Below, piece by piece: positions 14,321 to 25,872 of a DNA stretch of 64,000 nucleotides. A model generated the notes under the pieces. It did not search any database, was not told the DNA's origin, and saw only the letters and a list, made by a program, of their open reading frames with translations. The translations under genes and the position numbers were made by a program. The stretch is taken from contig NC_135361.1 of assembly GCF_051622035.1 (NCBI RefSeq), positions 26,901,205 through 26,965,204 on the forward strand, in the 5' to 3' direction. Position 1 is the stretch's first letter, and every line of letters begins with the position of its first letter. This DNA comes from Arctopsyche grandis (taxonomy: Eukaryota > Arthropoda > Insecta > Trichoptera > Hydropsychidae).

Positions 14321-17300
14321 TCAAATCCCTTTGGTTTGTATTAATTCAACTAAAGTTCTAGTTGGTCTTCCGGTCATACCTAAAAGTAGCAAAGTACACA
14401 TTAGTATCTTTGTCTATGTAAATAATTGACATACTAAAGAAGACATTTTTACCTTTATCGATATATGGTTGATCATCAGAATCTTCCATGACACCAGCAA
14501 TGTCTATATGCATCCATGGAACGGAAGCCGGAGCAAACTCAGCTAAAAAGGCAGCCGCCGTGCACGATCCCCCACCCTTGCCTTTACCGACATTGTGGAC
14601 ATCGACATTCGTATAATCTAGAAATACACATATTAAAACGCATTCTTTGAATTTGACAAGATTATAACTTGTGTTTAATCTAAATACCTGTGACACGCTT
14701 TGTATGATATCTCCAAAGAGGCATCCGCCACAGTCGGTCTCCAGATCGGACAGCCGCAGCCTGTGCAGCATTCCACAACACTGAATGTTTAGTGAAAACT
14801 CCGGCAGCAGCACATCCTAGCGATACTCTTATAGCACCGGTCAAAGTGGCTAAATCAACAACCCAAGCCGGATCAAATCTAAACAAAAGTAAATATACAT
14901 ATATACGTATGTGATCATATTTGCCATAATTGAAAAACCATACAAAGCAAATATATTACGTTTGAGAATAGCACAGAGCATCGGCAAGAATCAATCTCCC
15001 TTCAGCATCAGTATTATCGACCAAAACACTCTTTCCGTTCATGGCAACAAAAACATCACCGGGTTTGGTCGCTCTGCCGCCAGGCATATTTTCAGTTAAT
15101 GGTATTAAACCTGGGGAAACATATTAAAAATTTGAAACTATTGATGACCCATACGAGTTGAATATACATAAATACAGACCAACTAAATTCACAGGTAGAT
15201 TTAAAGCAGCTGCTGCTCTGAATGTTGCAACCACACAAGCGGCACCTCCCATGTCTCCCCTCATACTTGCCATACCAGCAGAAGGTTTTATACTAATGCC
15301 TCCCGTGTCAAATGTAACACCTTTGCCAACCAATACGACTGGTTTATCTCCTGAAATAGTCAAAATAATAATAGAAGATGCAGTAAGTTACGAGAAAAAT
15401 TGGATTAGAGTTAATTCATTGGAAGCGAAGATGATCACACACTTTCATCTCAATGTAAAAGATATACCTTTGAAATCTGGGCTTTTATAGGCAATTTCTA
15501 AGAATTTCGGCGGCTCATCAGATCCTCTGGCCACAGATAAGAATGAAAACATTTTCTTGTCTTCAGCCCATTTTTGATCTCTGCAATGAAGCATTATCAT
15601 GTTTAGTTGATCAATGTGAATTCCATACTTTATATTTATATACATATTGTTAGTCTTCACTGAATGCTCCTACATTACAGGTCAAAAATTACCTAATTGT
15701 GATTTTAACATTGAGTTTTTCGAGTTCGTTTGCTACAGTCTCGGCGAAAATAGTCGGAGTCATAAGATTGGCAGGTGTTTCCATTAGATCTCTGGCAAAA
15801 TTTTGCGACTTGGCTGCAGTGACACCAGTATTCCATTCTTGAGCAGACGCTACAAATGCACAAAATTACCCTCAAATATACTCTTCATATTTATTACAAT
15901 TATAAAAAAGTATATTTACATTTATTTTCCGCATATAATACTAATTCTGGTATTTTCTTTCGATTTTTGACTAATTTATTTTCTTGATACGAGTATAAAG
16001 ATAAAGTCGATCCTTCAGCAGCTTGTTGAGCGCCTCCTAATTCTTCAACAGTGATGTGAGAAATTCCAGCTGAATGAAGCGCTTTACAACCGACTGAAAA
16101 ATGTTTTTGTGTTCATTGAGTATTTTAAGAGCAGCTGAGAAATTGTCAACACTATTTTATTTTATTATAACTGGTAAACGGATTATTCCGCACATAGCGA
16201 TCGCTCCCACGACAATTGCGAATATGTAATATCTATCACTCAAATTCTCGTTAGCGTGGATAACTATCGATGGGTGGGATTTTCGGGTCCCAGATATTCT
16301 GTATTCGAAATTTTCGTGATATGTACACAATCGCCATGTGCGATATTGTCATTTTAACCATACCTCCAGCTGCAATTCTTATATTTTCACGGGCTTCATC
16401 GATTTCCTCGATGGGATCGTAAGCGGCATCGGTTGAACCGAGTCCAACAAGTGCCACAGCTGGGAATTCATTGCTCAAGCCCCAGAACACTCTAGCATTT
16501 CCGTTTTTCAAAGGGGAACCGCTGAAAGGACAAGACTCGGTCATGATCTATACTCCATACATCATGTTACGGTCGTACAAAATATAATATATGGTGTGAA
16601 AACATCTAATAATAAATGACATACATTTATTTAAGTCTTTATTTTATTTTACAATTTCAATATACAATGTACATACGTATAGTTGTGTATACGTTAATAC
16701 ATACAAATATAAATATAATACATACAAACATATCTATTATACACAGAGACAAATATATATATATATATACGATAACTCGGAAAATATTTATAATATAATA
16801 TTTTCATACAATTTTATTCCTTTCAATGTTTAACTTCATTTAAAAATTTCTCTATATTCACTACAATTGATAACATTTAAAACATGTAAACAAATGAAAA
16901 AGTCTAGGAAATTGAACAGCGTTCATTTCTAATACAAATCAATTTGTGGATTTATTCACTATACATCAATACGAATATCTTGTAAAACATTATATTCTAT
17001 ATTAGGATAAAATTGTTCAATTTTTATCAATGGTTTGTCAATCCGTTCAGGACTCGAAATACATTAAAATGACGCTAATAAAATCAATCTAAAATATATT
17101 GCTTTACGTTTGTTTGTGTGTGCGCTATAATTTAACATGTTTCAAATGTCGTGCATAAAATGCAAAATTTTATATGAAAGCATTCACAATGATATTACAA
17201 TATAAATATTTTTCTTTTTGATTGTCAGGAGAGCTACATATACATATTTCAACAAACTAATTCTTTATATAAAAAATTATATTTCCACAAACGTGAAAAT

Positions 17301-25872: not shown

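What the first reader, a model, noticed from the sequence alone, without database searches (positions are those of the whole stretch)
14321..25872. Intronless full-length COP1 nested inside an intron of a leucine aminopeptidase gene
COP1 (20482-22575) lies entirely between aminopeptidase exons 2 and 3, on the same strand, with no intron and no damage over 697 codons. Vertebrate COP1 is split into many exons, so this is either an old functional retrogene or complete intron loss. Same-strand nesting raises the question of how the host transcript avoids ending at the COP1 poly(A) signal. COP1 is, as far as I know, missing from Drosophila, so its form in other insects is of interest.
Basis: partly seen in the sequence, partly recalled or inferred. 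Interest (0 to 1): 0.75.

Follow-up and report, generated by a model that had tools for sequence, protein, structure and literature searches.

The report
Single-copy intronless COP1 inside LAP intron
In this animal genome, probably an insect's, the only COP1 ubiquitin-ligase gene found has no introns and sits intact inside an intron of a leucine aminopeptidase gene, reading in the same direction; it is a clear example of a known arrangement (a nested, probably retroposed gene) and not a new kind of system.

Summary
A 697-codon intronless COP1 frame (22575-20482, minus strand) encodes a RING and WD40 protein; 6 of 6 substrate-pocket residues checked are kept. It lies inside intron 2 (23462-16522, 6,941 bp) of an 11-exon, 513-residue M17 leucine aminopeptidase (LAP) on the same strand. 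The exon 2/3 join across COP1 keeps phase and aligns to bovine LAP with one one-residue gap. In the 475.7-Mb assembly no second COP1 was found: the 20 other matches (E <= 0.001) cover only WD40 or RING parts at 34% identity or less. The LAP N-terminal exons matched only here. DET1, COP1's partner, is present in three stretches, apparently separated by introns. Best reading: an old functional retrocopy that became the sole COP1; complete intron loss is the rival. I could not separate them: no flanking repeat or poly(A) tract above chance remains, and no relative's COP1 could be compared. How the host avoids the nested poly(A) signal is largely answered in print for Drosophila: 727 of 1,651 nested genes lie on the host's strand, and intronic poly(A) signals stay silent while a 5' splice site lies upstream. 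No expression data were available. Verdict: real, new member of a known kind, modest interest.

The parts
20482..22575 (-). COP1 coding frame, 697 codons plus stop, no intron
16522..23462 (-). LAP intron 2 (6,941 bp, GT-AG) that holds COP1
25759..25848 (-). LAP coding exon 1 (start codon at 25848; 90 nt; may extend into 5' UTR)
23463..23575 (-). LAP exon 2 (113 nt), encodes the conserved KGLVLG.Y start of the M17 N-domain
16364..16521 (-). LAP exon 3 (158 nt), first exon after COP1
14321..16093 (-). LAP exons 4-11 (16093-15920, 15849-15693, 15580-15468, 15350-15180, 15110-14960, 14878-14688, 14617-14453, 14379-14321)
20414..20424 (-). two overlapping ATTAAA hexamers just after the COP1 stop: nearest candidate poly(A) signals (13 AATAAA/ATTAAA lie between the COP1 stop and LAP exon 3, so chance is likely for many)
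16626..16648 (-). three AATAAA within 23 bases about 105 bases before LAP exon 3: possible far COP1 3' end, untested
22921..22939 (-). acceptor-like site, first exon base 22921, about 345 bases before the COP1 start; the only one scoring 4 or more between the LAP exon 2 donor and COP1; candidate for a COP1 5'-UTR exon or a cryptic host exon
   Evidence: approximate matrix, recalled weights
21923..21923 (-). donor-like site AAA|GTAAGT inside the COP1 frame, scoring above each of the 10 real LAP donors
17511..18081 (-). high-copy repeat of about 570 bp between COP1 and LAP exon 3 (39 other scored copies, 85-90% identical)

Best explanation
This is the functional and only COP1 gene of this animal. 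It most likely arose as a full-length retrocopy of spliced COP1 mRNA that landed in intron 2 of LAP in the host's orientation, after which the multi-exon parent was lost. It is transcribed from a promoter of its own in the roughly 890 bp between LAP exon 2 and the COP1 start and ends at its own poly(A) signal. LAP transcription runs through it; the LAP exon 2 donor bound by U1 keeps the nested poly(A) signals silent, and the whole 6.9-kb intron with COP1 in it is spliced out. Shown: intact COP1, intact LAP around it, phase and alignment across the join, no second COP1 in the assembly. Inferred: retroposition, own promoter, silencing by the upstream donor, expression of either gene.
For: Intact 697-codon COP1 with RING and WD40 domains, matching COP1 at E 6.1e-215, a C3HC4 RING pattern and 6 of 6 substrate-pocket residues named in PMC12808801 (residues). 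Complete LAP with 10 of 10 GT-AG introns and an N-terminal part found nowhere else in the assembly. One full-length COP1 match and 20 partial, distant ones. DET1 present in three stretches with gaps of 53 and 67 bases, so the partner seems to keep introns. COP1 GC3 is 0.56 against 0.35 in LAP, 0.39 in a DET1 stretch and 0.36-0.44 in three helicase ORF pieces, which fits, weakly, a foreign arrival. Drosophila tests: host transcripts ignored the nested gene's poly(A) signal in two gene pairs, and loss of the donor restored poly(A) use (PMC3890989).
Against: No retroposition scar: the longest exact repeat flanking COP1 is 11 bases, within the 9-14 of 60 shuffles, and the only A-run of 7 or more in the 1.48 kb downstream is one of 7. 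The COP1 frame is not depleted of donor-like, acceptor-like or poly(A) motifs against 400 synonymous shuffles (1, 0 and 1 seen; means 1.03, 0.14 and 0.83) and holds a donor-like site stronger than any real LAP donor, so I found no sign of adaptation to nesting. No promoter or expression evidence. Assembly completeness is not given.
Confidence: 0.6

Rival explanations
1. Complete intron loss in place: a multi-exon COP1 was already beside or inside LAP and lost all its introns, for instance by recombination with its own cDNA.
For: No retroposition scar; no parent copy in the assembly. Either history leaves the same single intronless gene.
Against: Needs a multi-exon gene in a LAP intron first and then loss of every intron. 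COP1's higher GC3 is mild evidence that it came from elsewhere.
Confidence: 0.25
2. COP1 and LAP share a promoter: COP1 is made as an alternative 3' exon of LAP transcripts through the acceptor-like site at 22921, as in loci where a nested gene shares the host's first exon (the cholinergic locus, recalled).
For: The site at 22921 scores 5.4, above 5 of the 10 real LAP acceptors, and is the only one of 4 or more between the LAP exon 2 donor and COP1. [quoted passage not shown]
Against: By my reading of the sequence a join of LAP exon 2 to 22921 meets a stop codon at once, and a join of exon 1 to 22921 soon after, so COP1 would be a second reading frame and poorly translated unless an untranslated first exon is used.
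Confidence: 0.1
3. The nested gene switches the host: active COP1 transcription makes LAP transcripts end early in intron 2, as Mcts2 does to H13 in mouse.
For: Same geometry as H13/Mcts2 (PMC13309782, abstract and Introduction). 3 AATAAA/ATTAAA lie in the intron before COP1 and 13 after it.
Against: In Drosophila intronic poly(A) signals were found silent and rarely used (PMC3890989, abstract). No expression data here.
Confidence: 0.15

Closest known systems
Mcts2 in intron 4 of H13 (mouse)
   Same: Retroposed gene inside a host intron (PMC13309782, Introduction); nesting raises the same question of host poly(A) choice.
   Different: Mcts2 keeps its parent Mcts1 and is imprinted with a CpG-island promoter; here no parent COP1 was found and nothing is known of imprinting.
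KTI12 in TXNDC12 (human)
   Same: Single-exon gene nested in tandem orientation; a minigene showed cryptic exon use upstream of it (PMC3192792, passages).
   Different: KTI12 is another protein; whether it is a retrogene was not stated in the passages seen.
Same-strand nested genes of Drosophila (xl6/nop5, ytr/eIF6)
   Same: Nested gene on the host's strand; the host transcript ignores the nested poly(A) signal (PMC3890989, Results part 1 of 2).
   Different: Expression and processing were measured there, not here; the genes differ.
e(y)2 of Drosophila
   Same: A retrocopy took over the parental gene's function in almost all tissues (PMC12611072, abstract).
   Different: There the parent survives as the testis gene e(y)2b; here no parent was found.

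Membership tests
COP1 (RFWD2) E3 ligase | RING finger near the N-terminus | tested here: met
   PF13923 at residues 47-84, 40.6 bits over a cut-off of 27; C3HC4 spacing by inspection
COP1 (RFWD2) E3 ligase | C-terminal WD40 domain of COP1 type | tested here: met
   PF00400 at 86 bits over 27; residues 355-697 align to COP1 at i-E 8.9e-164
COP1 (RFWD2) E3 ligase | Substrate (VP motif) pocket residues | tested here: met
   6 of 6 residues named in PMC12808801 conserved; the numbering offset of 30 comes from the alignment
COP1 (RFWD2) E3 ligase | Coiled coil between RING and WD40 | not tested
   the region aligns to COP1, but no coiled-coil prediction was run
COP1 (RFWD2) E3 ligase | Ligase activity, DET1 and substrate binding | not testable with these tools
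   DET1 gene present
M17 leucine aminopeptidase (host) | N-terminal and catalytic M17 domains in one reading frame across all exons | tested here: met
   PF02789 and PF00883; alignment 31-508 to 1bll
Same-strand nested gene | Whole gene inside one intron of a host on the same strand | tested here: met
   coding frame; the transcript ends of COP1 are unknown
Retrogene | No introns where relatives have them | tested here: inconclusive
   no intron in the frame; many exons in vertebrate COP1 is recalled, and no insect comparison was possible
Retrogene | Poly(A) remnant and target-site duplication | tested here: not met
   such marks fade with age
Retrogene | Multi-exon parent gene in the same genome | tested here: not met
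   loss of the parent would explain it

The most novel reading that the evidence does not exclude
A retrocopy fully replaced the ancestral COP1, and its seat inside LAP now couples the two genes: splicing of LAP intron 2 competes with COP1 transcription and poly(A) use, so that LAP output falls where COP1 is active, or COP1 borrows the LAP promoter through the acceptor at 22921.
Probability: 0.12. Interest if true: 0.5.

Novelty: new member of a known kind. Interest (0 to 1): 0.3.

Why it matters
COP1 is split into many exons in vertebrates (recalled). A genome in which the only COP1 found is intronless and nested is a clean case for dating when a conserved regulatory gene was replaced by an intronless copy, and a natural test of how a host gene reads through a nested same-strand gene outside mammals and Drosophila. 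The basic mechanism is already described, so the gain is comparative and not conceptual.

Tried and rejected
Relatives of COP1 in genome contigs (33 pattern matches, none a relative) and in viral contigs (3 pattern matches, none a relative): no use, as expected for collections of microbes and viruses. Rfam and tRNA search of the window: nothing.

A chance open frame and a decayed pseudogene were rejected: intact frame and conserved functional residues. An assembly artefact or foreign contig was considered: the gene lies inside a 33.7-Mb contig within a complete host gene, so this is unlikely, but no reads were seen.

That LAP exons 1-2 belong to another aminopeptidase was rejected: they match nowhere else in the assembly, and the joined protein aligns through the junction.

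Depletion of splice or poly(A) motifs in the COP1 frame as a sign of adaptation to nesting: not found. A first version of the splice scoring used other background frequencies and listed fewer sites; the values reported are. Matrix weights were recalled, not trained.

Literature: 10 of 10 paper searches used. None of the listings showed a paper on the gene structure of insect COP1 or on COP1 nested in LAP; the library lacks most subscription journals.

Full report
What is there. On the minus strand, 22575-20482 is one open frame of 697 codons, opening two codons after an in-frame stop, so the N-terminus looks complete. Its chance in random sequence of the same composition is about 3e-17. Pfam finds a RING finger and WD40 repeats above their cut-offs. 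Against the PDB the best match is COP1 (9ltr, 731 residues, E 6.1e-215), with stretches 17-308 and 355-697. Six residues named in the human COP1-DET1 paper as lining the substrate site (S425, K472, Y491, W517, H578, F645; PMC12808801, passages) fall, at an offset of 30 taken from the alignment, on the same residues here: 6 of 6. The frame is therefore under constraint as a COP1 protein.

The host. Eleven exons from 25848 to 14321 give a 513-residue protein with 10 of 10 GT-AG introns and consistent phases. It has both M17 domains and aligns to bovine LAP from residue 31 to 508 at E 1.4e-152. Exon 2 supplies the conserved KGLVLG start and exon 3 the next conserved block; the join across COP1 costs one one-residue gap. 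The intron that holds COP1 is 6,941 bp; intron 1 is 2,183 bp and the other eight are 69-270 bp. In the whole assembly the LAP N-terminal exons match only here; the other M17 places (C3, C11) match only residues 272-396 (15 rows, 11 of this gene, 4 others). The exons cannot be assigned to another found gene.

Is there another COP1? The window's assembly has 475.7 Mb in 189 contigs. The COP1 protein finds one full-length match and 20 others at E <= 0.001, with identities of 20-34%, 19 of them in the WD40 part and one over the RING (64 of 67 candidates scored). A multi-exon COP1 would show as several strong exon matches. None is there, though the assembly's completeness is not given. DET1, with which COP1 works in mammals, is present on C12 as three stretches with gaps of 53 and 67 bases, which look like introns; two of the three stretches contain a stop within the matched span, which I did not examine further.

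Origin. Retroposition with loss of the parent is my first choice; intron loss in place is the rival. For it: full length, no introns, a seat in an unrelated gene, and a GC3 of 0.56 against 0.35 in LAP, 0.39 in a DET1 stretch and 0.36-0.44 in three helicase ORF pieces that may run into introns. Against it: no poly(A) remnant and no flanking repeat above chance (longest 11 bases; 60 shuffles gave 9-14), and no parent. These marks fade with age, so the result is neutral for an old event. No relative's COP1 could be searched: collection scans gave nothing, and the genome collection holds prokaryotes besides this genome. The number of exons in vertebrate COP1 and the absence from Drosophila are recalled claims that I did not confirm. 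Spodoptera has an annotated COP1 (PMC13116445, one passage), so COP1 is at least reported in Lepidoptera.

How it works. The question of how the host avoids the nested poly(A) signal has been studied. In Drosophila, 727 of 1,651 nested genes have the host's direction; in two pairs the host transcript ignored the nested signal, and deleting the 5' splice site restored it (PMC3890989; abstract, part 1 of 5 of the text and Results part 1 of 2). I take the same for this locus: the donor of LAP exon 2 (CTT|GTAAGT) lies upstream and silences what follows until the intron is spliced. This is inference. The intron carries 3 AATAAA/ATTAAA before COP1, 1 in it and 13 after it, most of which could be chance in such AT-rich DNA. 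In mammals nested transcription can instead end the host early (PMC13309782, abstract and Introduction) or force cryptic exons (PMC3192792, abstract and passages). Here an acceptor-like site at 22921 and a donor-like site at 21923 inside the COP1 frame are where such effects might be seen. The COP1 frame shows no depletion of such motifs against 400 synonymous shuffles, so I find no adaptation to nesting.

Comparison and verdict. It works like other same-strand nested single-exon genes, and the host-nested geometry meets that definition at the level of coding frames. As a retrogene it lacks the two direct proofs (parent, scar). I rate it a new member of a known kind. The most novel reading, a replaced COP1 whose seat couples it to LAP, is not excluded but has no positive evidence beyond geometry and one acceptor-like site.

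Noticed in passing
17511-18081 and 23763-25136: A high-copy repeat of about 570 bp lies in LAP intron 2, and a second copy in intron 1 is split by about 1 kb that includes a 171-codon frame on the plus strand which looks like the end of a LINE-type element (no Pfam match): apparently one mobile element inside another.
   Followed up: partly
16542-16547: An ATG in frame with LAP exon 3 lies just inside the intron (ORF 16251-16547), so a promoter after COP1 could give an N-truncated LAP; it may be chance.
   Followed up: no
4139-6802: Minus-strand exons with DEAD and Helicase_C domains, which look like an ASCC3/Brr2-type helicase (name recalled), downstream of LAP on the same strand.
   Followed up: partly
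28061-30575: Plus-strand acidic and lysine-rich frames that look like a nucleolar protein such as NOM1 (impression only; no Pfam match for the two pieces tried).
   Followed up: partly
40623-41018: Minus-strand frame with a Quiver-family Ly-6-like domain (PF17064, E 2.9e-9).
   Followed up: no
L002, L003, L004, L005: WD40 frames of 387-701 codons without stops on small contigs (34-52 kb) with 26-31% GC; they may come from a compact-genome symbiont or parasite in the assembly.
   Followed up: no
43891-44388, 52439-52762: Long open frames made mostly of alternating TA-rich microsatellite sequence.
   Followed up: no
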